Part shown: piece by piece, positions 13,188 through 53,146 of the stretch | How positions within the stretch are numbered: the stretch's first letter is position 1 | How the letters are laid out: each line of letters opens with the position of its first letter | Origin: Pigmentiphaga sp. NML080357 | GTDB lineage: Bacteria > Pseudomonadota > Gammaproteobacteria > Burkholderiales > Burkholderiaceae_B | DNA length: 64,000 nt | Direction: 5' to 3' | Assembly (NCBI RefSeq): GCF_002188465.1 | Contig: NZ_NINW01000038.1 | Coordinates: forward strand, 1-64,000 | The notes under the pieces: model-generated | What the model was told of the DNA's origin: nothing | The model's database searches: none | What the model saw: only the letters and a program-made list of their open reading frames with translations | Made by a program: the position numbers and the translations under genes

Positions 13188-13491
13188 CACCCCCTACGCC
13201 CTTCGGGCGCCCCCTCAAGGGGGCGGCGCTGGAAGGAGAGGCCACCCCACGCGGCTTACGCCGCGCCCCTCAAGGGGCGGCGCTGGCGGACCGGCAAAGC
13301 CGGATCCGCGGCGCCCTGGGTCTAGTGAGAATTTCTTAAGTTGTCACACCGCTGCTACCGCTGGCAGCCAGCGAAGCACCAGCGCCACACTTCAAGAAAG
13401 CGGCCCTAGACCCAGGATGCGGCGGATCTGGCTTTGCCTGTCCGCTCGCATCGCCCCCTGGGGGGCGCGCGTCAGCGCGTAGGGGGGGCCT
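13188..13491 (-). repeat. dispersed hairpin-rich composite repeat, copy A
   Basis: This fills most of the 500-base gap between the HNH gene and htpG. Read from the HNH stop codon it contains CCCCTACGCGC, a CCCCC/GGGGG hairpin, then an arm of about 40 bases ending CTGGGTCTAG (13406-13446). A core with GCTTCGCTGGCTGCCAGCGG follows, then the inverted arm starting CTAGACCCAGGGCG (13286-13325) and a C-rich hairpin flank that is tandemly duplicated (13188-13231 and 13243-13288). Copies B and C share arms, core and orientation. No protein is encoded. Confidence 0.85.
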
Positions 13492-14055
13492 CTACCCCGC
13501 CAACCGGCTCGTAGTCGGGACGCCGGCCATGAGGAACTCCATCTGGTCGGCCAGGATGCGGCGATTGCGCAGGATCATGCCTTCCCAGCGATTGGGCCGG
13601 TACGGCAGGTAGAGCAGCGGCATGCCGGCCTGTTCGGGCGTACGGTTGCCCTTGCGCTGGTTGCACGAGCGACACGCCGTGACGACGTTCTCCCAGGTGT
13701 TGGCGCCGCCGCGGGACTCGGGCCGGACGTGTTCGATCGTCAGTTCGGCCTCGGGAAAACAGCCGCCGCAATAGCCGCAGATATGTTTGTCGCGCGCGAA
13801 CAATCGTTCGCGGCTGATGCTGATGGACGCCGAGCGGTCGCCCCGGAACTCGCGGCCGCGCACGGCGATGATGCTGGCGGTGCTGACCGTGGAGACGAGC
13901 CCGGTCAACCGACTGGTGCCGCCCCGATAGGTGACGGTGTTCTCCCCCAGTTCCCAAGCCACCCGGCCCGCGACATGCAGGCAGATGGCCTTTTCGATAT
14001 CCACCCAGTGCACCGGCGTGCCGGCGACATCGAGCGCGAGAACCAGATGAGCCAC
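13492..14055 (-). CDS. HNH endonuclease family protein
   Basis: A 187-residue protein with a C-terminal HNH domain. Cys93 and Cys96 (CGYC) and Cys128/Cys131 (CRSCN) form the zinc knuckle, and [19 protein letters not shown] supplies the His-Asn core (109-123). The N-terminal half ([16 protein letters not shown]) is the conserved domain of a common stand-alone HNH family. Such proteins may cut DNA, but no restriction or phage neighbours are present. The start is GTG at 14055 with AGGAG six bases upstream. The stop codon adjoins repeat copy A. Confidence 0.88.
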
Positions 14056-14160
14056 AGTTTTCTCCTATGTGGATTGCCTATCGCTATCTTTCACTGGGTT
14101 TTTATACAGCGCATCAATGACCAAATCAAGACAAACGCTGATTCCGCATTACGGGAACCC

Positions 14161-14362
14161 CTAGCGGGAATTTCCTAAATTGCAACACCGTAGCTACCGC
14201 TGTCAGCCAGCGAAGCACCAGCACCCCAGACGGAGAAAATCGTACTAGACCCAGGGCGCTGCGGATCCGGCTTTGCCGGTCCGCCAGCGCCGCCCCCTCG
14301 AGGGGGAGCGGCCAAAGGCCGCCAGGGGGTGGGCTCCCCTCGCGCGCCAGCGCGTAGGGGAG
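14161..14362 (-). repeat. dispersed hairpin-rich composite repeat, copy B (half element)
   Basis: Occupies about two thirds of the 307-base gap between the MBL lipoprotein gene and the HNH gene. Read from the MBL stop, it has CCCCTACGCGC within two bases of the stop, two C/G-rich hairpins, the arm ending CTGGGTCTAG (to 14245), and the core GCTTCGCTGGCTG(A)CAGCGG. It ends near CTAG 14161 without the second arm, so it is a truncated copy. The remaining bases 14056-14160 form the AT-richer leader of the HNH gene. Confidence 0.82.
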
Positions 14363-15451
14363 TCAATTCCCCGGCGCCCGCACCAGCCACCTCTCGTCGC
14401 GCCACACCCGGCTCTCGCCGTGGCGCATGACGAAGAATTCGTCCGGCCCCATCCCGGCGTAGCGCCGGGCACGCGCCAGCTCGCGCGGCGGCTGGTCCAG
14501 GGCCTCGTCGGTCAGCTCGAAGGTGCCCCAATGGATGGCCACCGAAGCCTTGGCCCGCAGCTCCTGGTGCGCCTGGACTGCCTCGGTCGGATTCATGTGG
14601 TGGCCACGCATGAACCAGCGCGGCGCGTAGCCGCCTATGGGCAGCGCGGCCAGGTCGAAGGGGCCCATGCGCTCGCCGATGGTGGCGATGTCGCGCGAGT
14701 ACCCGAAATCGCCGCCGAACAGAAAGTTGAAGGCCGGCTCGCGGGTCTGGACGGCCCAGGCGCCCCATAGCGTCGCGCTGCGGTCGAATGGCGTGCGCGC
14801 GCTCCAGTGCTGGACCGGCAGCAGGGTCAGGATCGCGTCGCCCACGATGGTCTGGCCCCACCAGTCCAGGGGCCTCAGGTCGGTGGCCTCGGGCACGTTC
14901 TGGCGGAACCAGACGTCCACGCCCAGCGGCACCATGAAGACCGGCGGACCGCCGCGCTGCGCCGCCAGCGCCTTGACCGAATCGAGGTCCAGGTGATCGT
15001 AATGATTGTGGGAAATGACGACCGCGTCGATGTGCGGCAAGTCGGCCAGCGCGATGCCCGGCGGCTGGTGGCGCTTGGGTCCGGCGAAGGTAAACGGCGA
15101 GGCCCGCTCCGAAAACATCGGATCGGTCAGCAGGTTGAACCGGCCCAGTTGCACCAGCAGCGTCGAATGTCCGATCCAGCTTACGCGGACTTCGGACGAC
15201 GGCTCCTTGAGCCACGCCGCGTCGGCCACGACGGGCGCCAGCAGTTCCGTGGGCGCCGGCGGCAGATCCTGCATCCAGCGGTCGAACTGCCAGCGCCAGA
15301 AGTCCAGCGTCCCGGGCGTGGAATACGAGTAGAGGTTGCGGAAACCGTGCTCGGTATGATGCGGCTGGGCGGGGTCATAGTACGGGTTGACCGGAGAGCA
15401 CCCCGACAACGCACCCGCCGCCAAGACCGCCGCCAGCCACTTGCGCATCAT
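14363..15451 (-). CDS. MBL-fold metallohydrolase lipoprotein (NAPE-PLD/UlaG-like)
   Basis: A 362-residue metallo-beta-lactamase-fold hydrolase anchored as a lipoprotein: the N-terminus is a signal peptide with lipobox LSGC and Cys at 18. The metal motif HNHYDHLD is at 148-155, GHSTLLVQLG precedes it, FGGDFGYS supplies the bridging Asp, and IHWGTFELTDE the final His. This order matches the phospholipase D-like NAPE-PLD subgroup, which may hydrolyse N-acyl phospholipids; the bacterial substrates are uncertain. It lies three bases after the parC stop on the same strand and could be transcribed from the parEC unit. Confidence 0.87.
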   Translation of the reverse strand: MMRKWLAAVLAAGALSGCSPVNPYYDPAQPHHTEHGFRNLYSYSTPGTLDFWRWQFDRWMQDLPPAPTELLAPVVADAAWLKEPSSEVRVSWIGHSTLLVQLGRFNLLTDPMFSERASPFTFAGPKRHQPPGIALADLPHIDAVVISHNHYDHLDLDSVKALAAQRGGPPVFMVPLGVDVWFRQNVPEATDLRPLDWWGQTIVGDAILTLLPVQHWSARTPFDRSATLWGAWAVQTREPAFNFLFGGDFGYSRDIATIGERMGPFDLAALPIGGYAPRWFMRGHHMNPTEAVQAHQELRAKASVAIHWGTFELTDEALDQPPRELARARRYAGMGPDEFFVMRHGESRVWRDERWLVRAPGN

Positions 15452-15454
15452 GGG

Positions 15455-17763
15455 CTACAACACAGGCGAAAGCACGGGTTGCTTGGCCTTGGCGTCGAGC
15501 AGCCGGCCCTTGCGGGCTCGCTTGCCGACGTAGGCGGCCAACGCTTCGCCGGCGAGGATCTCCTCGTGCGGTTTGTTGCGGTAGATGCCGCTCACGCGCA
15601 ACCCCGCCGCCCCGACCGGCACGACCTGCGCCAGGCTGTCCTTGGCGTCGACATCCATCAGCGTCGTGCCGCGGCCGCCGGAAGACAGTGCCTTGACCTC
15701 GCCCAGGCCGAATACCAGGAAGCGCCCCTTGGCAGACAGCAGCGCGATCGACGCCGCGCCCTCGAATACCGGCACCGGCCGCAGCGGTCGATCGCCTTCG
15801 TCGAGCGTCATGAACTGCTTGCCGCCGCGCTGGCGCGTGGCCATGTCGCCCAACCGGGTGACGAAGCCCATGCCGCGCTCCGTGGTCAGCAGCCAACGGC
15901 TGTCGGACGCCGCGGCAATCATGTGGAGGATGTGGGTTCCCGCTTCCAGGTCGATGAGCGTGGTCACCGGCACGCCATCGCCGCGCGCCGAGGGCAGCGC
16001 GCTGACCGCCACGGAATAGACGCGCCCATTGCTGCCAAGGGCGACCAGCGTATCGGTGGTGCGGCATTCGAAGGCGCCGTAGAGCGCATCGCCTGCCTTG
16101 AAGGTGAACAGGCTGGCATCGTGGCCGTGGCCCTGGCGCGCGCGCAGCCAGCCCTTCTGGGACACGATGACGGTGACCGGCTCGTCGATGATCTTGGCCT
16201 CGACCGTGGCGCGTTCGGCGGCCTCGATCAGCGTGCGGCGATCGTCGCCGTACTGCTTGGCGTCGGCCTCGATTTCCTTGACGATGAGGCGCTTGAGCGA
16301 CGACGGGTTGGCCAGCAGCTCTTCCAGCTTGGCCCGCTCGTCCTTCAGGTCCTTCAATTCCTGCTCGATCTTGAAGCCTTCCAGGCGCGCCAGCTGGCGC
16401 AGGCGCATCTCGAGGATGTCCTCGGCCTGCCGTTCGGACAGGTTGAAGGCCTGCATCAGCGCGGGCTTGGGCTCGTCCGACTCGCGAATGACCTTGATCA
16501 CGGCATCCACGTTCAGGTAGACCACCATGCGGCCTTCCAGCACGTGGATGCGGTCCAGCACCTTGTCCAGGCGGTGGCGCGAGCGGCGGGTGACGGTCTG
16601 GGTGCGGAAGGCCAGCCATTCGTCGAGGATCTCGCGCATCGATTTCTGGCGCGGCCGGCCGTCGTTGCCCACCGCCACCAGGTTGATGGGCGCGCTGCTT
16701 TCCATCGACGTATGGGCCAGCAGCGTATTGACGAACTCCTCGCGATCCACGCGCGAGGTCTTGGGCTCGAACACCAGCCGCACGGCGGCATCCTTGCCCG
16801 ACTCGTCGCGGACCGCGTCCAGCAGGCTGAGCAGGGCAGCCTTGGTCTGTTGCTGCTCGTTGGTCAGGCTCTTCTTGCCTGCCTTGACCTTGGGATTGGT
16901 GAGCTCCTCGATTTCCTCGAGCACCTTCTGGCCGGACGTGGAAGGCGGCAGTTCGGTCACCACCAGCTGCCACTGGCCGCGCGCCATTTCCTCGAACTTC
17001 CAGCGCGCGCGCACCTTGATCGAGCCGCGACCGGCGCTGAAGATCTGCGCGATCTCGGGCTGCGGCGTGATGATCTGGCCGCCGCCCGGATAGTCGGGCC
17101 CCGGCAGCAGCGCGTAGAGCTCCTCGTCGGCGATCTTCGGATTCTTCAGCAGCGCGACCGCGGCCTGGGCCACTTCGCGCAGGTTATGGGGCGGGATCTC
17201 GGTGGCCATGCCCACCGCGATGCCGGAGGCGCCGTTGAGCAGCACCACGGGAAGGCGCGCCGGCAACTGCTTGGGCTCCTGGTAGGAGCCGTCGTAGTTG
17301 GGGATGAAATCGACCGTGCCTTCGTCCAGTTCGTCCAGCAGGAGGCGGGCGATGGGGGTGAGCCGCGCCTCGGTGTACCGCATGGCCGCCGCGCCGTCGC
17401 CGTCGCGCGAGCCGAAGTTGCCCTGTCCGTCGATGAGCGGATAGCGCAGCGAGAACGACTGCGCCATGCGCACCAGCGCGTCGTAGGCGGCCTGGTCGCC
17501 GTGCGGATGGTACTTGCCCAGTACGTCACCCACCACCCGCGCCGACTTCACGGGCTTGGCGTTGGCGCCCAGCCCCATGGCCTGCATCGCGTACAGGATG
17601 CGGCGCTGCACCGGCTTCTGGCCGTCGCTCACGTCGGGCAGCGCGCGCCCCTTGACCACCGATACCGCGTAATCCAGATAAGCCTGTTCGGCATAGCGCG
17701 CCAGCGTGATCGCGGCGTCGCCGCCCGGCGTCTCGAACAAGCCGGGTTGTCGTTCGTCCGTCA

Positions 17764-17764
<1 letters not shown>
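15455..17764 (-). CDS. parC: DNA topoisomerase IV subunit A
   Basis: A 769-residue type IIA topoisomerase subunit that breaks and rejoins DNA for decatenation, partnered with ParE. ATG 17764 shares its first base with the parE stop (TAATG); the 14 codons before it are leader. Active-site Tyr is at 130 ([10 protein letters not shown]). The quinolone region reads [13 protein letters not shown], with Gln at the position of E. coli Ser80 and Asp at Glu84; I believe this is usual for betaproteobacterial ParC and do not treat it as acquired resistance. The C-terminal half forms the beta-pinwheel domain. Confidence 0.96.
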
Positions 17765-19722
<1,958 letters not shown>

Positions 19723-19805
19723 GTTATCCCCAGCAACTGTGAAAAATGAAGGCTATTGTACGGATGGAGCGACGATCCATGCCCGCCGGGCCGGACACGT
19801 CCGCC

Positions 19806-19958
19806 TCAGAAGCCGCACAAGGCCATGAGCGCATCCCAGCCGACGACCAGCTCGGGACGCAAATAGCCCAGGAAGGCTACAGCAAGCACGGCGGCAAGCA
19901 AAGCGTAGGCCGGCAACGCGCGCCACCGCCGGCGCCTTCCGGGCGGCCGCGCGTTCAT
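19806..19958 (-). CDS. small single-pass membrane protein, coupled to the MFS gene
   Basis: A 50-residue ORF too short for routine calling. It begins with a strongly basic N-terminus (RPPGRRRRWR), followed by one hydrophobic helix at about 15-32 (PAYALLAAVLAVAFLGYL) and an acidic/aromatic tail. Its ATG overlaps the MFS stop codon (ATGA at 19958-19955), the same coupling seen at other real gene pairs in this window. The positive-inside charge pattern predicts a cytoplasmic N-terminus. I recognise no family; a transporter-associated small protein is a guess. Confidence 0.55.
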   Translation of the reverse strand: MNARPPGRRRRWRALPAYALLAAVLAVAFLGYLRPELVVGWDALMALCGF

Positions 19959-21166
19959 GCTGCCCCCGCCGGCGCCAGCGCCCGTTCGCGCACGGGCAGG
20001 CACAGCGCAGCAGCGGCCAGGCCCAGGGCTACGGACAGCCACCACACGACGTCGTAGCTCCCGGTGGCGACGTACAGCTTGCCCCCGAGCCAGACGCCGA
20101 CGAAGCTGCCGATCTGGTGCCCGAAGAATACGATGCCCGTGAGCGTGGCGGCATAGCGCATGCCGTAGATGTGGCCGACCAGCGCGGTGGTCAGCGGGAC
20201 CGTGCCCAGCCAGACCAGTCCCATCAGCGCCGAAAACGCATACAGCACGGCCGGCGTGAGCGGCAGGAAGATCAGCAGCAGGATCGCCGCCGAGCGCGTG
20301 GCGTACAGCAGCGCGAGGAGATGCTTCTTGCTGTGGCGCCCGCCCATCCTGCCGGCCCAGTACGAGCCGAACACGTTGAACAGGCCGATCAGCGCGATCG
20401 CCAGCGCGCCGTTGGACGCCTTCAGGCCGCCGTCGACGACGAAGGCCGGCAGGTGCAGCGTGATGAAGGCGGTGTGGAACCCGCACACCGCATAGCTCCA
20501 GAACAGGAAATGATAGGAGCCGTCGCCCACGGCCTGGCGCACGGCGGCGCCCAGCGATTGCGCGCCGGCCGCGTGCTCCGGCTTGCCGGTCAGCCTCGTC
20601 GCCAGCGGCAGCGCGAGCAGCATCAGCGCGGACAAGGCCCACAATGCGCCGGTCCAGTCGAAATGGTCGATCAGCAACTGGCCCGCCGGCACCACGACGA
20701 ATTGCCCCATCGACCCGCCCGCGCTGGCGATGCCCATCGCGGCGCTGCGCCGCTCCGGGGGCACCGACCGCGCCACTACGGGGAGCAGCACGGCAAACGT
20801 GGTGCCGGCCTGGCCCAGCCCCACCAGCACGCCGGCACAGAGGTACAGCATGAGTTCGGACCCGGCGTAGCGCGTCCCGATCAGACCCAGCGCGCACAGC
20901 AGCGCCGACACGACGATGGTGCGTCCCGAGCCCCATTTGTCGGCCACCGATCCCATCAGGATCGCCGCGACGCCCCACACCAGGTTCTGGATGGCGAAGG
21001 CCAGCGAGAAAACGTCGCGTCCCCAGCCATGGACGAGCCCCATGGGCTGCATGAACAGGCCGAAGGTGGCGCGCACGCCCATGGCGAAAAGCAGCACCAG
21101 CGAAGCGCAGACGACGATGCGGTCGGCGTGGGACGAAGACGGGGAAGAAACTCGCGACAACGGCAT
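19955..21166 (-). CDS. MFS transporter
   Basis: A 403-residue major facilitator with about twelve hydrophobic segments. MGVRATFGLFMQPM near residues 30-43 is the TM1 pattern of the oxalate/formate and monocarboxylate antiporter-like group, and GSVADKWGSGRTIV is the loop 2-3 motif (G-x3-D-R/K-x-G-x-R/K). The start at 21166 places the first helix 17 residues in; the frame upstream to 21265 is unsupported. The gene is near but separate from the GntR gene (115 bases), transcribed in the same direction, so GntR might control it. Substrate unknown, probably an organic acid. Confidence 0.87.
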   Translation of the reverse strand: MPLSRVSSPSSSHADRIVVCASLVLLFAMGVRATFGLFMQPMGLVHGWGRDVFSLAFAIQNLVWGVAAILMGSVADKWGSGRTIVVSALLCALGLIGTRYAGSELMLYLCAGVLVGLGQAGTTFAVLLPVVARSVPPERRSAAMGIASAGGSMGQFVVVPAGQLLIDHFDWTGALWALSALMLLALPLATRLTGKPEHAAGAQSLGAAVRQAVGDGSYHFLFWSYAVCGFHTAFITLHLPAFVVDGGLKASNGALAIALIGLFNVFGSYWAGRMGGRHSKKHLLALLYATRSAAILLLIFLPLTPAVLYAFSALMGLVWLGTVPLTTALVGHIYGMRYAATLTGIVFFGHQIGSFVGVWLGGKLYVATGSYDVVWWLSVALGLAAAALCLPVRERALAPAGAA

Positions 21167-21280
21167 GGGGATGATGACCTCGACGCCAAGGCGGCGCGCC
21201 GGATGCTCGCGCCCACGGCCGTGGCCCGGGCATTGTAGTCGCCGGGCCCGGTCGCAGCGCGGCAACCGGCGCGTGCGCCT

Positions 21281-22000
21281 TCAGTCCTGTTCCGCCGCGT
21301 GGTCCAGCAGGCGTCCGACGATGGACAGTATCTGCTGTGCCGCATCCGCGATGTGGCGCTCCAGGACGGCCTGGGCCTCGCCGGCCCGGCGGGAGCGGCA
21401 CAGGTCGATCAAGGCCATGTGCTCGTCGTGGGCTTGCTGCCGTATCGGGGCGTTGACCACCTGGAAGCGGAAATAGCGTTCGGACTTCTCATGCAGCGCG
21501 CGCACGATATTCAGTGCGGCGGGCCGCTGCGCCGCCTTGTAGAGCCGCTCGTGCAACTGCCAGTTCAACTGGCCCCATTGCTGCGGTCCCGCGGTATCCA
21601 TGCGCGCCACGCATTGCTCGGCCTGCGCCAGTTCGTCCGGGGAAATCAGCAAGGCCGATTCGTGCAGCAGCCAGGGCTCGAGGCGCAGCCGGATATCGAA
21701 CAGCTCCTGCACTTCGGCCCGCGACAGCATGGAGACGAAGGCGCCGCGATGGGGAATGGCGTCCACGAATCCTTCGGCGCTGAGTTGCCGGATGGCTTCC
21801 CGCACCGGTATCCGGCTCACCCCCAGTTCGTCGGCGAGCACTTCCTGGCGCAGCGGGGAACCGGGCGGGAGGTCGCCGGACAGGATGCGATCGCGCACGG
21901 CTTCGGCCACCAGTTCGGAAGTGGTCCTGCGCACGAGCCGGGTACCGGCGGCTTGCCCGGAAGCCGGGCGGGAGGGCGAAGATGAATCGTTTTTGGGCAT
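21281..22000 (-). CDS. GntR family (FadR/FCD) transcriptional regulator
   Basis: A 239-residue regulator with an N-terminal winged HTH (AVRDRILSGDLPPGSPLRQ... ELGVSRIPVREAIRQL) and a C-terminal FCD ligand domain. FDIRLRLEPWLL, QLNWQLHERLYKAA and EHMALIDLCRSRRAGEA carry the Asp and His residues that bind metal or carboxylate in this class. ATG 22000 gives normal family length; an in-frame ATG at 22063 is the alternative. It diverges from a dapA-like gene across an interval with two ATTGGATCCAAT-like palindromes, which it probably binds. FCD regulators are usually repressors released by a pathway acid. Confidence 0.88.
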   Translation of the reverse strand: MPKNDSSSPSRPASGQAAGTRLVRRTTSELVAEAVRDRILSGDLPPGSPLRQEVLADELGVSRIPVREAIRQLSAEGFVDAIPHRGAFVSMLSRAEVQELFDIRLRLEPWLLHESALLISPDELAQAEQCVARMDTAGPQQWGQLNWQLHERLYKAAQRPAALNIVRALHEKSERYFRFQVVNAPIRQQAHDEHMALIDLCRSRRAGEAQAVLERHIADAAQQILSIVGRLLDHAAEQD

Positions 22001-22115
22001 GGGCTGAAGATCGCATGGCGTCGGGGACGGCGCATCGGGAATTCCGGTGCGTACGTCCGGCATCCAGGTAAACCCGGACAGACGCGCTAAAGGGGAAACG
22101 ATTTAATAGCAGTAT

Positions 22116-39348: not shown

Positions 39349-39350
39349 GC

Positions 39351-44923: not shown

Positions 44924-44930
44924 GGCCGCC

Positions 44931-45932
44931 ATGCGCACACTGGTGATCGGCGCCGGCCCCATCGGCACCTACCTGGCGGCGAAGCTTGCCGCTGCGGGCG
45001 TCGACGTCATGCTGCACGGACGCGGCCCCATCTTTCGCGACATCGAGGCCCATGGCGCGCGGCTCGCGCGGCAGTCCGGCACGCAGACGCAGACGATAGC
45101 CCTGCGGTGCAGCGCCGTGCCGCCGGACGCGCGCAACTGGGAGATGGTGGTGTTCGCCGTCAAGGCCCAGGACCTGCCGGCCGCGGCGCGCCAGTTCGCC
45201 CGCCACGTCGAGGATGCTCGCATCGTGCTGCCCCAGAATGGACTCCCCTGGTGGCAGTTCCTGGGCACGGCCGGTCATCCCTTGCGATTGCGCTCGGTCG
45301 ACCCCGATGGCGATGCCGAACGCGCCCTGCCCCTGGAACGCATCGTGGGCTGCACCGTCACCAAGGGCTTATCGTTCCGTCCGGATGCAACGCTGGTGGA
45401 AGCCGTCGTCGCCACCGACCAGTTTGCCGTGGGCGATGTGCTGGAAGGCTCGCTGGCGGCGGAGCGGCCGGCCGACTTGCTGGCCCACTGCGGACTTCCG
45501 GTCAAGCTCGCCGCCGATATCCGCCTCGAGAAGTGGCGCAAGCTGCTGATCAACGTCGCCTTCAATCCGCTGGGCGCCATCTCTCATCTCGGCTTCGGAC
45601 AGGTCCTGGACGACGAGCAGGGAGAATGGCTGGCCGGCCAACTGATGGGCGAGGCTTTGCAGATAGCGCGGGCCTGCGGCCTGTCGGCGGCTGTCGACGT
45701 CGAGGCCGCCTTTGCGCGGGCACGCAGCAGCCGCCTGCACAAGACCTCCATGCTGCAGGACGTGGAAGCCGGACGCCCCCTGGAGCTGGATCCCATCCTG
45801 GGCGTCCTGCTGGAACTGGCCGCCCATCATCAACTGCCGGCCCCCACCCTGCGCGTCGTCTACGCCTGCCTGCGGCTGATCGGCCTGGCCCTCGTAGAAG
45901 GCCCTATTCAACGCCGCCCGCGAAAGGCATAA
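44931..45932 (+). CDS. ketopantoate reductase (ApbA/PanE) family protein
   Basis: A 333-residue NADPH-dependent reductase. GAGPIGTYLAAKLAAAG (7-23) is the nucleotide-binding motif, VFAVKAQDLPAA the next block, and EKWRKLLINVAFNPLGAI carries the Lys and Asn of the active site. Several copies occur per genome and most sit in catabolic clusters, so ketopantoate may not be the substrate. GAGG lies before the ATG. It ends 32 bases before the AraC gene and is last in the enzyme run. Confidence 0.85.
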   Translation: MRTLVIGAGPIGTYLAAKLAAAGVDVMLHGRGPIFRDIEAHGARLARQSGTQTQTIALRCSAVPPDARNWEMVVFAVKAQDLPAAARQFARHVEDARIVLPQNGLPWWQFLGTAGHPLRLRSVDPDGDAERALPLERIVGCTVTKGLSFRPDATLVEAVVATDQFAVGDVLEGSLAAERPADLLAHCGLPVKLAADIRLEKWRKLLINVAFNPLGAISHLGFGQVLDDEQGEWLAGQLMGEALQIARACGLSAAVDVEAAFARARSSRLHKTSMLQDVEAGRPLELDPILGVLLELAAHHQLPAPTLRVVYACLRLIGLALVEGPIQRRPRKA

Positions 45933-45964
45933 GCTGAGGCGATTCCTTCTCGGAGTTGCTCTCG

Positions 45965-46891
45965 ATGGGGACGAAGACGATACCCACCTTCTCGCTTGCC
46001 CAGAAGCGCTTCTGCTGGGAAGGAGTCGGCATCCGCAGCACCGAATCCGCCGAGCGCAACATGCCCGCGCACCGCCACAGCTTCTTCCAGATTTTCTTCG
46101 TCGCGTCGGGCAGCGCCGTCCACGACATCGCGGGAAGAATCGTCCAGGCCAGCGCCGGCCACATTTTCTTCGTCAGCCCCTACACGATCCACCAGGTCGT
46201 CTTTCCCGAAGACGCCGAATGCTACGTCCTGTACTTCGACGCCCCCTTCCTGCGGCGAGGATTCTCCGTTTCCGAAATAGCCGCCCAGGACTCCCAGCTG
46301 TATGCGCTCCCCGAACTGGCTCCGTTCGTGTACCAGCGTTTCTGCACCTACGAGCTCGACGCCGAGGCAACACAGCAGATGCGCGAGCGCTGCGAGCGGA
46401 TCCGTGCCGCCTGCGAGCGCAAGGGCATCCTGGACCAGGCGGAGGTCAGGGCCGAACTGACCCTGCTGCTGACGACCGTGGCCAGGCGCTACAGCGATGA
46501 ATTCAAGCGGATCGACAAGTCCAATGCCGTCGCGCCTTGCCTCGACAAGCGTGCCCGCGCCGCGCTGAGCTTCCTTCAAGAGAACTTCGACAGGCCCTTG
46601 ACGCTCTCGGACGTCGCCGAGAAAGTACACCTGACCGGCACCTATCTCACTCACCTGCTCAAGCACGAGACGGGGAAGTCGTTCAAGCCGCTGCTCGACC
46701 AGATCCGCCTGGAAAACTCGAAGAACCTGCTGGCCTACACCGACATGCCCTTGCAGAAGATCGCGATCTCTTCAGGCTTCCTCGATCACGCGCATTTCGC
46801 CAAGCGATTCAAGGCCTATACCCGCCTGACCCCGGCCCAGTTCCGCCGGCAGAAGCGCCGCCTCGAGCCGCCGCCCGAGGTGGGCGCGTGA
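45965..46891 (+). CDS. AraC family transcriptional regulator
   Basis: A 308-residue regulator. The N-terminal cupin (HRHSFFQIFFVASGSAVHDIAGR, then IFFVSPYTIHQV) is of the ligand-sensing AraC type, and two C-terminal HTH units appear as LTLSDVAEKVHLTGTYLTHLLK and LQKIAISSGFLDHAHFAKRFKAYTRLTPAQFRR. ATG 45965 is taken as start; a TTG at 45956 is an alternative. It follows the Bug-DctP-RraA cassette and probably regulates it. Its 3' end is only six bases from the convergent molybdoenzyme gene. Confidence 0.9.
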   Translation: MGTKTIPTFSLAQKRFCWEGVGIRSTESAERNMPAHRHSFFQIFFVASGSAVHDIAGRIVQASAGHIFFVSPYTIHQVVFPEDAECYVLYFDAPFLRRGFSVSEIAAQDSQLYALPELAPFVYQRFCTYELDAEATQQMRERCERIRAACERKGILDQAEVRAELTLLLTTVARRYSDEFKRIDKSNAVAPCLDKRARAALSFLQENFDRPLTLSDVAEKVHLTGTYLTHLLKHETGKSFKPLLDQIRLENSKNLLAYTDMPLQKIAISSGFLDHAHFAKRFKAYTRLTPAQFRRQKRRLEPPPEVGA

Positions 46892-46897
46892 CCGGCG

Positions 46898-49207
46898 TCA
46901 TGCTTGCGCCGCCAGCTCGGGCACCTCGAACGCCCGCACCGCCGGCGCCTCGCCTTCCCACTTGCGGATGTCCACGAGCGCCGACAGCGCGCTGGGAGCC
47001 TGGGCCAGGCGCGAAGTGCCGACGTCGACGGTCAGCACGTTGGGATTGCCGTGCCGCTCCAGGTCGACGCCCTCGGGATCGAACCATGCGCCGGTGGACA
47101 TGATCGCCACGCCGGGCATCACGCCGGCGCTGACCACGGCCGCCGCGACGCAGGCCCCGCGGTCGTTGTACACCTTGACCAGGTCGCCATGCGCAATGCC
47201 GCGGCTGGCGGCATCCACCTCGGACATGTGCACGCGTTCGCGTCCGTGGATCTTGCCCGCTACCGAGACCGAGCCCGCATCCAGCTGCGAATGAAGCTTG
47301 TCCCCGGGCTGCGAGGTCACCAGGTGCAGCGGAAAGCGGACGGCCGCCTCGGCACCCAGCCATTCCACCGGCTCGACCCAGGACGGGTGCGGCGGGCAGT
47401 CGTCGTAGCCGAAACCGGCGATGCGCTCGGAATAGATCTCGATCTTCCCCGAGGGAGTTTGCAGCGGATGGGCCTCAGGGTCGCGGCGGAAGTCCTCGAA
47501 CAGGACGAATTCGCGCGAAGGCTCGGGCAGCTCCAGGTAGCCGGCCTCCCAGAATGCGTCGAATGCCGGCGCGTCGAAGCCGCCGTCGCGCCAATTCCTG
47601 GCCAGGTTGTCGTAGATATGGCGCAGCCACTGGAACTCGTCGCGGCCTTCGGTGAAGGCGGCTTCGTGGCCTGCCATGGCGGACAGTTCACGGTAGATGT
47701 CGAAGTCGTTCCGGCTTTGCGCATGCGGCGCCAGTGCCCGGTGCATGGCCAGCACGAAGCGGTCGCGCGACGAGCCGCCGATGTCGTTGCGTTCGAGCGT
47801 GGTGGTGGCGGGCAGCACGATGTCGCCGCGCCTCGCGGTCGGCGTCCACCAGCTGTCGTGCACGATGATGGTTTCGGGCCGGCTCCATGCGCGCATCAGC
47901 CGGTTCAGGTCCTGGTGGTGGTGGAAAGGGTTGCCGCCGGCCCAGTACACCAGCCGGATGTCCGGATAGGTATCGCGTTTGCCGTTGAACTCGAAGGGCT
48001 CGCCGGGTTGCAGCAGCATGTCGGCGATGCGCGCGACGGGGATGGAGCGGCCGGTCGGATTGCGGCCCGCGCTCATCTCGGGCGCGGCGACGCCGGGCCG
48101 GGGATTGCCCACCCCGTTCATGGACCCGTGGCCGAACGCGAACCCGCCGCCGGGCAGGCCGATCTGGCCCAGCGCCGCCGCCAGCGCGATGACCGCCCAG
48201 TACGGCTGCTCGCCGCGATGGGCGCGCTGCAGCGACCACGTGCAGCTGAGCAGCGTGCGCGTCCCCGCCGCCCGGCGGGCGAGATCGCGGATCTCGCCCG
48301 CCGGGACGCCGCACACGCGTTCGGCCCATTCCGCATTCTTGGCGATGCCGTCGGTCTTGCCCAGTACGTAGTCGGCAAAGCGGTCGAAACCGGCGCAGTG
48401 GGTGCGGACGAAATCGGCGGCGTGGCGCTGCTCGGACACCAGCGTGTGCACCATCGCCAGCATCATGGCGGTATCGGTGTTGGGCCGGATGGGTATCCAG
48501 CGCGCCGCCACGCCTTCCGGCACGTCCGCGCGCGTGGGACTGACCACGACGAACTCGATGCCGGCGCGGCGGGCGCGCTCGAGCCACTTCGGCGCCGAAT
48601 GCTCGCCCGCGCCGCCGGAGGTGATCTGCGTATTTCGCAGCGGCAGGCCGCCGAAGGCGAGGAACAGCCGGGTATGCGCCTCGACGCTCTTCCAGTCGGT
48701 GACGCGGCCGGTCACCGGCGCATACGTGCCGATGACGTGCGGCAGCAGGAACTGCGCCGCGCCCCAGCTGTAGTTGCCGGCCTGGTTCACGCACCCGCCG
48801 CCGGCATTCAGGAAGCGGTGCGTGAGGGTACGCGCGTGATGCAGCCGGCCCGCCGACGACCAGCCATAGGATCCGCCGAAGATGGCGGCATCGCCGTGCT
48901 GCGCGCGCACGCGCGCCAGTTCGTCGGCGACCAGCCTGAGGGCGACGTCCCACTCCACCTCGACGAAGGGCTCCGTGCCGCGGGCCGAGCCGTCGGCCGC
49001 GCCGCGGTCGCGCAGCCAGCTCCGGCGCACCGCCGGCCGGGCGATGCGCAACGGAGAATGCACCATGCCCGGCATGGATTGCAGGATCGCCGAAGGCGCG
49101 GGGTCATGGGGAAACGGCTCGCAGGCGCGCAGCCGGCCGTCTTCGACCACGGCGGTAAAGGCTCCCCAGTGCGACAGCGAGGGATAACGTTTGGTCTCTG
49201 CAGGCAT
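46898..49207 (-). CDS. molybdopterin-dependent oxidoreductase, BisC/TorZ-like
   Basis: A 769-residue DMSO-reductase-family enzyme. SYGWSSAGRLHHA (113-125) carries the Ser that ligates Mo in BisC/TorA-type enzymes, and the N-terminus has no Cys motif for an iron-sulfur cluster. SGGAGEHSAPKW and FEFNGKRDTYPDIRLVYWAGGNPFHHHQDLN are cofactor-binding blocks. No twin-arginine signal is present, so it is cytosolic like biotin sulfoxide reductase (BisC), which reduces biotin or methionine sulfoxide. It lies 27 bases downstream of the lrp-like gene on the same strand, suggesting co-transcription. Substrate unproven. Confidence 0.88.
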   Translation of the reverse strand: MPAETKRYPSLSHWGAFTAVVEDGRLRACEPFPHDPAPSAILQSMPGMVHSPLRIARPAVRRSWLRDRGAADGSARGTEPFVEVEWDVALRLVADELARVRAQHGDAAIFGGSYGWSSAGRLHHARTLTHRFLNAGGGCVNQAGNYSWGAAQFLLPHVIGTYAPVTGRVTDWKSVEAHTRLFLAFGGLPLRNTQITSGGAGEHSAPKWLERARRAGIEFVVVSPTRADVPEGVAARWIPIRPNTDTAMMLAMVHTLVSEQRHAADFVRTHCAGFDRFADYVLGKTDGIAKNAEWAERVCGVPAGEIRDLARRAAGTRTLLSCTWSLQRAHRGEQPYWAVIALAAALGQIGLPGGGFAFGHGSMNGVGNPRPGVAAPEMSAGRNPTGRSIPVARIADMLLQPGEPFEFNGKRDTYPDIRLVYWAGGNPFHHHQDLNRLMRAWSRPETIIVHDSWWTPTARRGDIVLPATTTLERNDIGGSSRDRFVLAMHRALAPHAQSRNDFDIYRELSAMAGHEAAFTEGRDEFQWLRHIYDNLARNWRDGGFDAPAFDAFWEAGYLELPEPSREFVLFEDFRRDPEAHPLQTPSGKIEIYSERIAGFGYDDCPPHPSWVEPVEWLGAEAAVRFPLHLVTSQPGDKLHSQLDAGSVSVAGKIHGRERVHMSEVDAASRGIAHGDLVKVYNDRGACVAAAVVSAGVMPGVAIMSTGAWFDPEGVDLERHGNPNVLTVDVGTSRLAQAPSALSALVDIRKWEGEAPAVRAFEVPELAAQA

Positions 49208-49234
49208 GGCACAGCTCTTGGTTGATAGGCAAGG

Positions 49235-49693
49235 TCACGCGTAGTCCAACGGCAGCGCCGTCGTGTACTTCAGTTCTTCCATCGCGAAACTCGAACTCAC
49301 GTCGAACAGTTCCACGACCTGTATCAGCTTCTTGTACACCATATCGAAGCCCTGGATGTCGGGCACCACGACCTTGAGCAGGTAGTCGATCTCGCCGCTC
49401 ATCCGGTAGAACTCCACCACCTCGGGCATGTCGCGCACGCCGGCGGCGAATTTCTGCAACCACTGCAGATCGTGATGATTGGTCTTGACCGCCACGAACA
49501 CCGTCACGCCCACGCCCAGCTTGCGGTTGTCGAGCAGGCATACCTGCTTGCGGATCACTCCTTCCTGGGTCAGGCGCTGGATGCGCTTCCAGCACGCGGT
49601 AGGCGACAGGCTGACCCGCTCGGCGATCTCGTTGACCGAAAGCGTGGCATCCTCCTGGAGGATAGAAAGAATATTGCTGTCTTTTTTATCCAT
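49235..49693 (-). CDS. Lrp/AsnC family transcriptional regulator
   Basis: A 152-residue regulator. The N-terminal HTH is LSVNEIAERVSLSPTACWKRIQRL (split over 18-41) and the C-terminal RAM (ACT-like) domain holds FVAVKTNHHD and GEIDYLLKVVVPD, which binds amino acids at the dimer interface. It diverges from the metC-like gene across 204 bases, and the lyase, DapA, Bug and DadA genes handle amino-acid-type substrates, so amino-acid-responsive control of the whole cassette is likely. The BisC-like gene follows on its own strand. Confidence 0.92.
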   Translation of the reverse strand: MDKKDSNILSILQEDATLSVNEIAERVSLSPTACWKRIQRLTQEGVIRKQVCLLDNRKLGVGVTVFVAVKTNHHDLQWLQKFAAGVRDMPEVVEFYRMSGEIDYLLKVVVPDIQGFDMVYKKLIQVVELFDVSSSFAMEELKYTTALPLDYA

Positions 49694-49897
49694 GGGAAAT
49701 TGATCACTATTCTAGACATTGAACGATAAATAATTTTCCCATTTTCTGACAAAAGCGAGTCCATTAAGAAAAAAAATTAATGCGCCTCGCCCCTACACTT
49801 TCCCTACGCTCGCGCCGCATCCGACGATGCCGCGCACGGCCGACGAGGCGCGGCGCGAAAGGCCGCTCGCCACATGAATTCGAGGACAGCAGCAGCA
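49694..49897. promoter_or_regulatory. divergent lrp/metC control region
   Basis: The 204 bases between the Lrp-like and MetC-like starts include an AT-rich core (about 49685-49790, with TAATTTT- and AAAAAAAATTAA-type tracts) that stands out in this GC-rich DNA. Lrp-family proteins bind degenerate AT-rich sites and bend DNA, so this is the likely target; no single box could be fixed by eye. Confidence 0.5.
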
Positions 49898-51100
49898 ATG
49901 AAAGAAAAGACCAGACTGGTCACCGCCGGCAGGCACCCCGAGCGTTTCGCCGGGCTCGTGAACACCCCCGTCTTCCGAGGATCGACGATTCTTCACGGAT
50001 CCATGGCCGAATGGGAAGACAAGAAGAAACGGCGGGCCGCCGACGAAGCCGGGGCCAGCACCTATGGCCGCTTCGGCACGCCTACCCACCATGCGCTGGA
50101 GGAGGCCATTGCCGAACTGGAGGGCGGATACCGCTCGCAGGTGTACCCCTCGGGCCTGGCGGCCTGCGCCACGGCGCTGACCTCGCTGCTGGCCGCCGGC
50201 GATCACGTGCTGCTGACCGACAGCGCCTATTCCCCGACACGCACCTTCCTGACGCGCGTGCTGGGACGGTTCGGCGTGGAAGCCACGATTTACGACCCCA
50301 CCGCGGGCGCCGGCATCGAAGCCTGCATGCGGCCCAATACCCGCGTGGTGTACGTGGAATCGCCGGGTTCCGAGACCTTCGAGATACAGGACATCCCCGC
50401 CATCGCGGCCGTGGCGCATCGTCACGGCGCCAAGGTCGTCATGGACAATACCTGGGGCACGCCGCTGTTCTTCAAGCCGTTCGAGCACGGCGTGGACGTT
50501 TCCATCCAGGCCGCCACGAAGTACATCGTCGGCCACTCCGACGCGATGCTCGGCATCGTCACCTGCACGCAGGAAACCTGGCCGCTGATCAAGCGCACCA
50601 CGCAAGACCTCGGCCAGACCGCCGGTCCGGACGACGTATATCTGGCGCTGCGCGGACTGCGCACGATGAACGTGCGCCTTGCCCAGCACTGGAAGGCCGG
50701 CGTCGAGGTCGCCTCCTGGCTCGAAACACGGCCCGAGGTCGAGAAGGTCCTGCACCCCGCATTGCCCAGCCATCCCGGCCACGCGCTGTGGAAACGCGAT
50801 TTCAAGGGTGCGAGCGGCCTGTTCGCCGTCGTTCTGAAACCGGCCTCGCCCGCCGCGGTGGAAGCCTTCATCGACAGCCTGCAGCTATTCGGCATCGGCG
50901 TCTCGTGGGGCGGCTACGAAAGCCTGGTCATCCCTTTCAACCCCTCGGGAGACCGCACGACGGCCGAATGGCCCTACACCGGCCAGGCGCTGCGCCTGCA
51001 CATCGGCCTGGAGGATCCGGCGGACCTGATCGCGGACCTGGAACAGGGCTTTGCCATGCTGGCCGAGGTCGAATCGGCCCCCGTCGCCCGCCGGGCCTGA
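49898..51100 (+). CDS. cystathionine beta-lyase (MetC-like), PLP-dependent
   Basis: A 400-residue Cys/Met-metabolism PLP enzyme. YGRFGTPT (56-63) contains the phosphate-binding Tyr/Arg pair, MDNTWGTP (182-189) the Asp contacting the pyridine nitrogen, and ATKYIVGHSD (206-215) the Schiff-base Lys 208. The sequence follows the proteobacterial MetC pattern, which releases homocysteine, pyruvate and ammonia from cystathionine, but related lyases act on other beta-substituted amino acids. ATG 49898 is preferred to 49874 because MKEKTRLVTAG is the conserved opening. First gene of the Lrp-linked plus-strand cassette. Confidence 0.87.
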   Translation: MKEKTRLVTAGRHPERFAGLVNTPVFRGSTILHGSMAEWEDKKKRRAADEAGASTYGRFGTPTHHALEEAIAELEGGYRSQVYPSGLAACATALTSLLAAGDHVLLTDSAYSPTRTFLTRVLGRFGVEATIYDPTAGAGIEACMRPNTRVVYVESPGSETFEIQDIPAIAAVAHRHGAKVVMDNTWGTPLFFKPFEHGVDVSIQAATKYIVGHSDAMLGIVTCTQETWPLIKRTTQDLGQTAGPDDVYLALRGLRTMNVRLAQHWKAGVEVASWLETRPEVEKVLHPALPSHPGHALWKRDFKGASGLFAVVLKPASPAAVEAFIDSLQLFGIGVSWGGYESLVIPFNPSGDRTTAEWPYTGQALRLHIGLEDPADLIADLEQGFAMLAEVESAPVARRA

Positions 51101-51154
51101 TCGCGCCCGACCCACGGAGTATCATGTAACAGTTATTCAATTGGTGGAATCGCA

Positions 51155-52090
51155 ATGGCTAAGATGAAAATCGAAGGGTCGTTCGTCGCCCTCATCACCC
51201 CCTTCAACAGCGACGGCAGCGTCGATTTCGAGGGCTTTCGCACGCTGCTGAAGTTCCATGAGGACAACGGCACCGCGGCCGTCCTGATCATGGGCTCGAC
51301 CGGCGAGGTCTCGATGCTGTCGCAGCAGGAACGGCAGCAGATCATCGCCGAGACGGCGAAGATGAAGACCGGGAAGATGAAGTTCTTCTACGGCTGCACC
51401 GGCAACAACACGGCCACGACCATCGACTACCTGCGCTTTGCGCACGCCAACGGCGCCGACGGCGCTATCCTGGCCGCGCCGGCGTACATCTGCGGGTCGG
51501 AATCCGATATCGAGGACTACTTCCTGGAAGTGGCCGACGCCACCGACCTGCCGCTGGGCATCTACAACAACCCTCCCCGCGTGAAGACCGACCTGCACTG
51601 GGACAACCTGCTGCGCATCTTCAAGCATCCCAACTACGTGGTGCACAAGGAATCGACCACGCGCGTGGGACAGGTCGCGCAGGTGCTGCGCGCGCGTCCC
51701 GACGTGGCCGTGATGTGCTGCGACTCGCCCAACCTGGGCCTGGTCGTGCCCACCATGAGCCTGGGCGGCCACGGCACGGCCAACATGACCGGCAACATCG
51801 CGCCCGCCGAGATCGCCGTCATCTCCAAGCCCTGGAAGACGCCCGAAGTGTCTGAGAGCTTCCGCGACATGTATCTGCACATGCTGCCCATGCTGCACTT
51901 CTCGTACTCGGCCATCAATCCGGTCGCCATCAAGTCGCTCATGAAAGCGGTTGGCCTGCCCGCCGGCGAGCTGCGCAAGCCGCTCAAGGGCCTAGCGCCC
52001 GAGGCACTGCAGAAGGGCCTGCGCGTCGTGCGCGAGCTCGAGCTCGACAAGAAATACGGCTGGAGCTCGCCCGAGCTGAAGTCGCTCTGA
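51155..52090 (+). CDS. dihydrodipicolinate synthase (DapA) family protein
   Basis: A 311-residue class I TIM-barrel aldolase. Motif GSTGE at 47-51, Tyr 137 (GIYNNP) and Schiff-base Lys 165 (VVHKES) are in place, so the fold should be active. Unlike housekeeping DapA it sits 54 bases after a MetC-like gene and 19 before an SDR gene, in a Lrp-controlled cassette. A catabolic lyase or synthase joining or splitting pyruvate and an aldehyde is more likely than lysine synthesis. Confidence 0.87.
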   Translation: MAKMKIEGSFVALITPFNSDGSVDFEGFRTLLKFHEDNGTAAVLIMGSTGEVSMLSQQERQQIIAETAKMKTGKMKFFYGCTGNNTATTIDYLRFAHANGADGAILAAPAYICGSESDIEDYFLEVADATDLPLGIYNNPPRVKTDLHWDNLLRIFKHPNYVVHKESTTRVGQVAQVLRARPDVAVMCCDSPNLGLVVPTMSLGGHGTANMTGNIAPAEIAVISKPWKTPEVSESFRDMYLHMLPMLHFSYSAINPVAIKSLMKAVGLPAGELRKPLKGLAPEALQKGLRVVRELELDKKYGWSSPELKSL

Positions 52091-52109
52091 CCGGACGGGG
52101 ACACGATCC

Positions 52110-52889
52110 ATGGACCTCGGCATCCAAGGCAGGAAGGCGCTGGTGTTCGGCGGCAGCCGCGGCATGGGGCGCGCCTGCGCGCTCCAGCTGTCGCAGGAAG
52201 GCGTGCACGTGACGATCGCCGCGCGCACGCTCGCGACGCTCGAACAGGCAGCGGCCGAGATCACCGCGCAGACCGGCAATCCGGTGACGGTCGCCGTGGC
52301 CGACATCACCACCGAAGCGGGCAGGAATGCGGCCTTGGCCGCCTGCCCCGCGCCCGACATCCTGGTGAACAACGCCGACGGCCCGGCGCCCGGCGATTTT
52401 CGCAAGTGGACGCTGGATGACTGGCACCAGGCGCTGGATTCGATGATGCTCGGCCCCATCGAGATGATCCGCCGCACGGTGGACGGCATGATCGACCGCA
52501 AGTTCGGCCGTATCGTCAACATCGTCTCGCGCAGCGTGAAGACGCCGCAGATCGAGCTGGGCCTGTCCAACGGCGCGCGCTCGGGGCTGGTGGGTTTCGT
52601 GGCCGGGCTGGCGCGCCAGACGGTGCGCCACAACGTCACGATCAACAACCTCTTGCCCGGCGTGTTCGCCACCGACGCGCAGCGCCGGCACATCGAAGGC
52701 ATGCTGGAGGATACCGGCAAGACCTTCGAGCAATTGTGGGAAGAGCGCGGCAGCAACAATCCCGCGGGACGCTACGGGCGGGCAGAAGAACTGGGCGCGC
52801 TGTGCGCGTTCGTCTGCTCGGCGCATGCGGGCTATATCACCGGCCAGAGCCTGTTGATCGATGGCGGGGGGTATCCGGGAACGTATTGA
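52110..52889 (+). CDS. short-chain dehydrogenase/reductase family protein with degenerate catalytic motif
   Basis: A 259-residue SDR fold protein. The nucleotide motif GGSRGMG (14-20) is close to GxxxGxG, ILVNNADGP replaces NNAG, and the Ser 140 region is IVSRSV. The catalytic YxxxK is Ser153-Asn-Gly-Ala-Arg157, so both Tyr and Lys are missing. A known BKR-like SDR subgroup shares this loss and its reaction is unclear. Its stop codon is followed at once by repeat copy C. Confidence 0.85.
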   Translation: MDLGIQGRKALVFGGSRGMGRACALQLSQEGVHVTIAARTLATLEQAAAEITAQTGNPVTVAVADITTEAGRNAALAACPAPDILVNNADGPAPGDFRKWTLDDWHQALDSMMLGPIEMIRRTVDGMIDRKFGRIVNIVSRSVKTPQIELGLSNGARSGLVGFVAGLARQTVRHNVTINNLLPGVFATDAQRRHIEGMLEDTGKTFEQLWEERGSNNPAGRYGRAEELGALCAFVCSAHAGYITGQSLLIDGGGYPGTY

Positions 52890-53146
52890 GCCCCCCCTAC
52901 GCGCTTACGCGCGCCCCCCAGGGGGCGATGCGGGTGGACCGGCGGAGCCGGATGCACCGCATCCTGGGTCTAGTACCGCTCTCTTGGTTTGGGGCACCTG
53001 TGCTTCGCTGGCTGCCAGCGGCAGCAACGATGTGGCAATTGGAGAAAGCCGTGCTGGATCCAGGGCGCCGCGGATCCGGCTTTGCCGGTCCGCCAGCGCC
53101 GCCCCTTGAGGGGCGCGGCATGAGCCGCGCGGGGTGGGTTTCCCTT
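52890..53146 (+). repeat. dispersed hairpin-rich composite repeat, copy C
   Basis: Fills most of the 369-base gap between the SDR and Bug genes. From the SDR TGA it reads CCCCTACGCGC, a CCCCC/GGGGG hairpin, arm 1 ending CCTGGGTCTAG (52934-52973), core GCTTCGCTGGCTGCCAGCGG (about 53003-53022), then the inverted arm 2 from CTGGATCCAGGGCG (53054) and a final CCCCTTGAGGGG hairpin. It is full-length, like copy A, and oriented the same way relative to the upstream gene. Bases 53147-53258 are the Bug leader. Confidence 0.85.

What the first reader, a model, noticed from the sequence alone, without database searches (positions are those of the whole stretch)
13188..53146. Three copies of a composite hairpin repeat, each starting at a stop codon in the same orientation
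Copies A (13188-13491), B (14161-14362) and C (52890-53146) share arms of about 40 bases ending in CTGGGTCTAG, a core GCTTCGCTGGCTGCCAGCGG, and several C-run/G-run hairpins. CCCCTACGCGC lies within about six bases of the stop codon of the upstream gene in all three (HNH, MBL, SDR), whichever strand that gene is on. A passive insertion should land anywhere and in either orientation. A fixed relation to stop codons suggests a 3'-UTR RNA element (terminator, stabiliser or processing site) or a mobile element that targets gene ends.
Basis: partly seen in the sequence, partly recalled or inferred. Interest (0 to 1): 0.72.

Follow-up and report, generated by a model that had tools for sequence, protein, structure and literature searches.

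The report
Stop-codon hairpin repeats in Pigmentiphaga
A family of repeated DNA pieces that fold into hairpins sits immediately after the stop codons of many bacterial genes, in related genera almost always facing the same way as the gene, which suggests that it acts in the messenger RNA at the end of the message rather than being randomly scattered.

Summary
The repeat is real. The genome (genus Pigmentiphaga, Alcaligenaceae) holds at least 50 copies with the 20-bp core. Copies A and C are two inverted copies of an ~89-nt, three-hairpin module around a ~102-bp palindromic centre. B has one module plus a damaged centre.

The module is the key unit. It occurs alone in other Burkholderiales genera: 42 of 46 sampled places outside this genus are sense-oriented behind a gene, nearly all starting within about 12 nt of its stop codon. 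Its helices covary: 95.8% of cells paired, 88 double-change cells against 23 +/- 4 in shuffles. No T-tract follows directly (0 of 42), and copies lie inside the atp operon.

In Pigmentiphaga, composites hug stop codons beyond chance (19 of 31 tandem copies within 10 nt) but have no fixed orientation (18 to 13). Their halves reassort at the core. No Y1/RAYT transposase was found in the six genomes with the core.

Best reading: a REP-like 3'-UTR RNA module, probably the published but functionally unexplained Betaproteobacterial repeat element (BRE). Sequence identity with BRE could not be tested.

The parts
13188..13491 (-). Composite copy A, between the 3' end of the HNH gene and the Hsp90 (htpG) gene, both on the - strand; abuts the HNH stop codon TAG
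13188..13232 (+). extra partial hairpin unit of copy A (C-run, GC stem, C5-TCAA-G5)
   Evidence: sequence
13238..13325 (+). three-hairpin module (far module of A, antisense to the flanking genes)
   Evidence: covariance model R1, 78.5 bits
13315..13416 (-). central palindromic unit of A, from CCTGGGTCTAG to CTAGACCCAGG
13358..13377 (-). 20-bp core GCTTCGCTGGCTGCCAGCGG
13406..13492 (-). three-hairpin module in sense behind the HNH gene (C-run 3 nt after the stop)
   Evidence: R1, 78.7 bits
14161..14362 (-). Partial composite copy B, between the 3' end of the MBL-fold gene and the HNH gene
14197..14216 (-). core of B (one mismatch)
14245..14335 (-). three-hairpin module of B in sense behind the MBL-fold gene
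   Evidence: R1, 85.1 bits
14336..14362 (-). additional stop-proximal hairpin of B starting 2 nt after the stop
   Evidence: sequence; fold
52890..53146 (+). Composite copy C, between the SDR gene and a TctC-family gene; starts 1 nt after the SDR stop codon (TGA 52887-52889)
52887..52973 (+). three-hairpin module in sense behind the SDR gene
   Evidence: R1, 76.6 bits
52963..53064 (+). central palindromic unit of C
   Evidence: sequence
53002..53021 (+). core of C
53054..53141 (-). three-hairpin module (far module of C, antisense to the SDR gene)
   Evidence: R1, 77.1 bits

Best explanation
The basic unit is an ~89-nt module placed directly behind a stop codon and read in the sense of the gene: a C-run, a GC hairpin, a C-run/G-run hairpin and a long GGACCGGC..AGCCGGATCC hairpin. 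SHOWN: its position, its orientation outside Pigmentiphaga, its covarying helices, the absence of a T-tract directly after it, and its presence inside an operon (atpA|atpG, atpD|atpC). INFERRED: it works in the mRNA as a 3'-end stem-loop element. It would block 3' exonucleases, so that the upstream message is protected or processed at the gene boundary, and being only about 8-26 nt from the stop codon it may also act on the terminating ribosome, as stop-proximal REP sequences do in E. coli. In Pigmentiphaga the module was combined into composites: two modules in inverted orientation around a ~102-bp palindromic centre, folding as one long hairpin. Either end can then serve the gene that ends there, and both ends serve a convergent pair. 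Composites spread or were exchanged within the genus (inferred from presence/absence and from half-element reassortment at the core) by a mechanism that does not use a recognisable Y1/RAYT transposase.
For: Sense and behind a gene in 21 of 22 loci from 11 genomes outside the genus, 17 of 19 loci in genus g2 (p=0.0007) and 4 of 5 named plasmid places. M hairpin within 66 nt of the stop in 19 of 22 and 16 of 19. Structure: 22 pairs, 95.8% of cells paired, 11 pairs and 88 cells with double changes against 6.5 and 23.2 in shuffles and 5-20 cells when slid. The 37-nt hairpin taken without regard to genes: 93.0% paired, 227 double-change cells against 68 +/- 12. No T-run of 4 within 20 nt after helix 3 in any of 42. 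atpA-module-atpG in this genome and in G581 of another family, atpD-module-atpC here (gene families by Pfam). Composites: 19 of 31 tandem copies within 10 nt of the stop; five convergent copies with 360-590 nt of spare space have one end within 11 nt of a stop; 1 divergent of 47. Giant hairpin z=-12.7 (A) and -8.8 (C). Site B starts at the stop codon in 6 species; at site A in 4 relatives the gene appears to end at the module's TGA (read by eye).
Against: No RNA data of any kind. In this genome the lone hairpins are less strict: of 52, 13 of 36 tandem ones are antisense and 4 lie in divergent gaps. In composites the far module is antisense in tandem contexts. Conservation of palindromy can also come from DNA-level processes. 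Alignment A1 was chosen from sense, stop-near modules and the structure derived from it, which ignored genes, is the check, and there two weaker measures (pairs with a double change 8, further pair types 27) stay within the shuffled range (maxima 9 and 28). In one search further pair types are reached by 32 of 500 shuffles. 5 of 42 have a T-run of 5 within 70 nt. Most gene calls are from my own codon-usage finder. The simple sign test for 'closer to stop than to start' is only p=0.06. The Methylibium copy lies inside an annotated transposase gene.
Confidence: 0.6

Rival explanations
1. A selfish REPIN/MITE-like hairpin element: insertion is blind, and purifying selection leaves only copies directly behind stop codons, where they do least harm. 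No function for the host.
For: Patchy presence: the core is in 6 of 11 Pigmentiphaga genomes and site C is empty in 8 of the 9 relatives shown. Mosaic halves, 166-229 exact hairpins per genome in seven species of the genus, truncated forms, palindromic composites like REPINs.
Against: Blind insertion does not predict the sense orientation of 42 of 46 modules outside the genus, nor 0-10 nt spacing in gaps of hundreds of nt. No Y1/RAYT transposase in the six genomes with the core.
Confidence: 0.22
2. Transcription terminators: the hairpins end transcripts in both directions, so they sit at gene ends and between convergent genes.
For: Convergent 15 and divergent 1 of 47 composites, against 28 and 44 of 173 ordinary gene pairs with gaps of 60 nt or more; strong GC hairpins directly after stops; a second centre family carries CGGCGTTTTTT (L307, L309).
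Against: No T-run of 4 within 20 nt after helix 3 in 42 of 42; no intrinsic-terminator match inside copies A or B (C not scanned; one match lies 46 nt beyond A, and 2 matches in the region are no more than shuffles give); modules between atpA and atpG and atpD and atpC, and in 29 of 41 cases the next gene is on the same strand within 150 nt. Rho-dependent termination is not excluded.
Confidence: 0.13
3. A DNA-level site (recombination, supercoiling or nucleoid protein binding); the core GCTTCGCTGGCTGCCAGCGG is a recombination site and the stop-codon position is secondary.
For: Left and right halves are uncorrelated across the core (r -0.03 to 0.04) while segments within a half correlate (r 0.26-0.27, p=0.002). 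The core is the least variable segment (mean distance 0.026 against 0.15-0.30), but the copies were selected by it. Tandem array of at least 6 centre units.
Against: The core is confined to Pigmentiphaga within the family (two stray one-mismatch matches), while the stop-anchored module is much wider. Homologous exchange inside a 20-bp identity block would give the same mosaic pattern. Composites with diverged cores exist (L308, L321, L323).
Confidence: 0.05

Closest known systems
Betaproteobacterial repeat element, BRE (Hot et al. 2011, PMC3110155; abstract, passages and section 14 seen)
   Same: ~90 bp (75-91), GC-rich, intergenic, some overlap ORF ends by a few bases, tandem copies, found in Alcaligenaceae and Comamonadaceae; none of the 13 listed Bordetella loci is between divergent genes; first seen in a transcribed region (bprJ)
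   Different: BRE counts are lower (1-29 per genome under their cut-off) and mean GC is lower (69.0% against 71-82% here). Stop-codon anchoring, sense orientation, covarying structure and the inverted composite are not described in the section seen ('stop codon' 0 occurrences in the main text). Sequence identity not tested: the sequence is only in a figure and supplement.
Bor repeats of Bordetella (Petrillo et al. 2006, PMC1590033; passages seen)
   Same: REP-like 26-30 bp hairpins near coding regions in the same family; may be the long hairpin alone
   Different: consensus not readable here, so identity untested; described as short single hairpins
REP sequences (E. coli and others; PMC3733652 and PMC12306157, passages seen; Liang 2015 known only through PMC12306157)
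   Same: palindromic, at gene 3' ends, termini may supply the stop codon, act on translation when within 15 nt of the stop
   Different: three hairpins instead of one, no GTAG tag, sense orientation outside Pigmentiphaga, no RAYT in the six genomes with the core
REPINs (PMC3116915, passages seen)
   Same: two inverted hairpin units with a spacer, folding as one hairpin; tandem clusters
   Different: far larger (about 250 bp), at least two centre families, no RAYT found
BOX elements of pneumococcus (PMC3049150, passages seen)
   Same: outer modules around a repeatable centre, A(B)nC; many overlap gene 3' ends and encode the stop codon (36 of 58 overlapping CDSs)
   Different: unrelated host; here the outer modules are inverted copies of one unit and most copies have one centre

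Membership tests
BRE | ~90-bp GC-rich intergenic repeat in Alcaligenaceae and Comamonadaceae | tested here: met
   89 model positions; GC 0.71-0.82 (somewhat above BRE's mean of 69%); hairpin in 6 of 43 genera of the family and in Variovorax and Diaphorobacter plasmids
BRE | sequence match to the B. pertussis repeat at 3605317-3605401 | not testable with these tools
   sequence only in figure/supplement; no named Bordetella genome could be read here
REP (GTAG-tagged) | GTAG or CGTC tetranucleotide tag at one end | tested here: not met
   alignment A1 shows no conserved GTAG or CGTC at either end
REP/REPIN | cognate RAYT (Y1_Tnp, PF01797) in the genome | tested here: not met
   0 matches in all six Pigmentiphaga genomes with the core; matches in 4 of 15 genomes: 3 of the 4 f49 genomes, and a fragment in G198
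REPIN | two inverted palindromic units with spacer forming one hairpin | tested here: met
   copies A and C; B has one module
BOX-like A(B)nC | variable number of central units between fixed outer modules | tested here: met
   n=1 in most; at least 6 tandem units of 108 bp at the C20 and C32 contig ends
intrinsic terminator | hairpin followed directly by a T-run | tested here: not met
   0 of 42; none inside A or B
MITE of a known IS | terminal repeats shared with an autonomous element; target-site duplication | tested here: inconclusive
   117 CCTGGRTCTAG sites counted, only part listed; six genes beside close copy pairs are not transposases; empty sites too diverged to read a duplication
Rfam families | covariance model match | tested here: not met
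   no match at gathering score in the window except a tRNA; one 14-bit sub-threshold match to Bp1_781 (gathering 80) over copy B

The most novel reading that the evidence does not exclude
A widespread, stop-codon-anchored, strand-specific RNA module that is read by the terminating ribosome: two C-runs compete for one G-run just beyond the stop codon, so that the ribosome's presence sets which hairpin forms and thereby sets decay or intercistronic expression. In Pigmentiphaga this RNA module has become the end-piece of a mobile palindrome that inserts at stop codons, sometimes supplying the stop codon itself, and whose halves are exchanged at a fixed 20-bp core without any known REP transposase.
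Probability: 0.2. Interest if true: 0.85.

Novelty: new variant of a known kind. Interest (0 to 1): 0.55.

Why it matters
BRE and Bor repeats have been listed in Betaproteobacteria without an established function. A rule of position and strand, with covarying helices, turns 'scattered repeat' into a testable RNA hypothesis, and the atpA-atpG copies give a ready site for the test. Stop-proximal palindromes that tune translation are, as far as the passages seen here say, described for E. coli REPs; an unrelated, larger and strand-specific version in another order would suggest that the end of the reading frame is a common control point. The composites raise the open question of how a palindrome can spread next to stop codons without a RAYT.

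Tried and rejected
Fixed orientation of composites: rejected (18:13). Short intergenic gaps as the whole reason for closeness to stops: tested against gap-based nulls and rejected, although the effect weakens to p=0.018 when 40 nt are reserved on the start side. RAYT mobilisation: no Y1_Tnp in the six genomes with the core. Autonomous IS with CCTGGGTCTAG ends: none seen in the listed part of 117 sites; six genes beside close copy pairs are MinC, a class I tRNA synthetase, a histidine kinase, LpxC, a redoxin and FtsZ. Phage or plasmid origin: no phage match and one 15% match on a plasmid. The HNH gene as mobiliser: a related gene lies near htpG in genomes without the element there (G198, G193, G194). 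Vertical conservation at atpA-atpG: not supported; none of the 29 other loci of the order has the module by the covariance model, several have unrelated strong hairpins there and several have none (the L281 junction was read only). Target-site duplication: not readable. Rfam: nothing. One protein was given out of frame and matched nothing; repeated in frame (Hsp90). The C20 and C32 contig ends were compared by eye, not joined.
Full report
OBSERVATION. Copies A, B and C are in the window as described. The 20-bp core with up to 3 mismatches occurs 62 times in the 5.73-Mb genome against 3 reversed-control matches. I fetched 52 of the 62 places (the other 10 have 2 or 3 mismatches); 50 of the 52 have the arm within 90 nt and were kept, 2 were dropped, and 46 have both arms. 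Composites with a diverged core exist as well and one search scored only 40 of 297 candidates, so 50 is a lower bound.

ANATOMY. Read with the core as GCTTCGCTGGCTGCCAGCGG, a composite is: outer module (C-run, GC hairpin, C-run/G-run hairpin, long hairpin), centre of about 102 bp with inverted ends CCTGGGTCTAG and CTAGACCCAGG, then an outer module in inverted orientation. A and C fold as one long hairpin (-219.8 and -180.7 kcal/mol, z -12.7 and -8.8); B, which has one module and a damaged centre, does not (z -3.5). The contig ends of C20 and C32 carry an array of 108-bp centre units, at least 6, that looks the same in both. Several lone modules and two inverted pairs (L307, L309) carry a different centre, CCTGGGGTAC.ACCAGGCTG...CGGCGTTTTTT.

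POSITION OF COMPOSITES. My codon-usage gene finder was applied to all 50. Three were unassigned; of 47, 31 lie between tandem genes, 15 between convergent and 1 between divergent genes; ordinary pairs with gaps of 60 nt or more are 101 tandem, 28 convergent and 44 divergent of 173. In tandem gaps the composite points either way (18 and 13, p=0.47). The stop-side remainder has a median of 7 nt and the start-side remainder 53 nt; the sign test alone gives p=0.06. Because short gaps force closeness, I compared with nulls: 19 of 31 are within 10 nt of the stop, against 3-4% for length-weighted and 20-26% for gap-uniform insertion. The position within the gap departs from uniform (KS p=1.2e-5 with no reserved start region, n=26 of 31; 2e-4 with 20 nt, n=25; 6e-4 with 30 nt, n=25; 0.018 with 40 nt, n=22), and convergent copies hug one stop (p=1e-4, n=9 of 15 with enough spare space). 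In all, 31 of 47 have an end within 10 nt of a stop.

THE MODULE ALONE. The exact hairpin GGACCGGCNNAGCCGGATCC is in 63 of 268 family genomes, 6 of 43 genera, with zero controls; seven Pigmentiphaga genomes have 166-229 each, three others 1-7 and one none. A looser 24-nt pattern is in 12 of 399 genomes of the order. The core with at most one mismatch is in 8 of 268, six of them Pigmentiphaga; the two others are single one-mismatch matches. In one locus per genome from 19 genomes of genus g2, 17 modules are in sense behind a gene, 16 with the hairpin within 66 nt of the stop. In 22 further loci from 11 genomes outside the genus (6 of the loci also g2), 21 are sense and 19 within 66 nt; two of the other three begin with a further hairpin unit at the stop, and in one no gene was called. 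Of five plasmid places, four (Variovorax, Diaphorobacter) have the C-run within 10 nt of a stop, three of these by public annotation; the fifth (Methylibium) lies inside a transposase gene. Together 42 of 46. In the window's own genome the rule is looser: of 52 hairpins outside the 50 composites (a few belong to composites with a diverged core), 3 were unassigned, 36 tandem (23 sense, 13 antisense), 9 convergent, 4 divergent. A covariance model found 15 modules in 464 kb including the window; 10 of 15 have a same-strand gene upstream and 8 abut its end.

STRUCTURE. Hairpins within 9 mismatches of four consensus strings in all loci then held, without regard to genes, gave 121 distinct 37-mers: 93.0% of cells paired against 85.0 +/- 0.4 in shuffles, 227 double-change cells against 68 +/- 12, 25-43% paired when slid; the number of pairs with a double change (8) and of further pair types (27) lies within the shuffled range. 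The whole module, aligned from 42 sense, stop-near loci, has three helices with 22 pairs, 11 with compensatory changes (shuffles 6.5 +/- 1.2), 95.8% of cells paired, 88 double-change cells against 23 +/- 4, and covariation 0.263 against 0.02-0.06 when slid; further pair types (22) are reached by 32 of 500 shuffles. The first paired base lies 8-26 nt after the stop, median 13 (selected set). None of 42 has four T within 20 nt after helix 3; 5 have five T within 70 nt.

INSIDE AN OPERON. The module lies between atpA and atpG and between atpD and atpC in this genome, and between atpA and atpG in G581 of another family (Pfam families of the six genes). It is not an ancestral feature of that junction: none of 29 other loci of the order has it, though several have unrelated strong hairpins and others none. 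This speaks against a plain terminator and for an RNA role at gene boundaries.

EVOLUTION. Site C is empty in 8 of the 9 relatives shown, and G191 has a lone module directly after the stop. Site B has a module starting at the stop codon in five relatives and none in four. At site A, in four of these relatives I read the HNH frame as running into the module and ending at its TGA (by eye). In this genome four composites have the called stop inside the left hairpin. Among 46 full composites, segments of one half correlate (r 0.26-0.27, p=0.002) but segments on either side of the 20-bp core do not (r -0.03 to 0.04); identical left halves occur with different right halves and the reverse. The left outer module is also uncorrelated with its own centre (r -0.07). 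The low variability of the core is partly by selection, since copies were found by it. So pieces are exchanged at conserved blocks. Y1_Tnp is absent from the six genomes with the core.

COMPARISON. BRE (PMC3110155) matches in size, taxa, tandem copies and gene-end context; its mean GC is lower. Its authors named no function, and the term 'stop codon' does not occur in the held main text. Whether the module is BRE by sequence I could not test. REP sequences within 15 nt of a stop lower translation in E. coli (as reported in PMC12306157). BOX elements share the A(B)nC plan and stop-codon overlap (PMC3049150). Searches for earlier description; apart from the papers named, no title or abstract start listed there showed the stop-anchored sense module or the Pigmentiphaga composite, but most subscription papers are not held.

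VERDICT. New variant of a known kind.

Noticed in passing
L165 (C20 end) and L066 (C32 start): Two contig ends carry what looks like the same tandem array of 108-bp centre units; they are probably neighbours, broken by the repeat.
   Followed up: partly
L307 and L309: Same outer modules around a second centre family (CCTGGGGTAC.ACCAGGCTG...CGGCGTTTTTT...) that does have T-runs and could be a terminator version.
   Followed up: no
L071 and L072: Two composites have a different right half joined at the core (GCTGGCTGCCAGCGT...), a further half type.
   Followed up: no
L255-L283, atpA-atpG junctions: Several genera have strong but unrelated hairpins at the atpA-atpG junction, as if a stem-loop is favoured there; others have none.
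   Followed up: partly
L010, end of the composite on the minC side: A run of about 20 C directly after the element, possibly length-variable.
   Followed up: no
L342 and L343: Near-identical lone modules with the same left centre behind genes of equal score and distance, probably a duplicated region.
   Followed up: no
L375 (Methylibium plasmid RPME01), 1501-1551: A module-like hairpin lies inside an annotated transposase gene.
   Followed up: no
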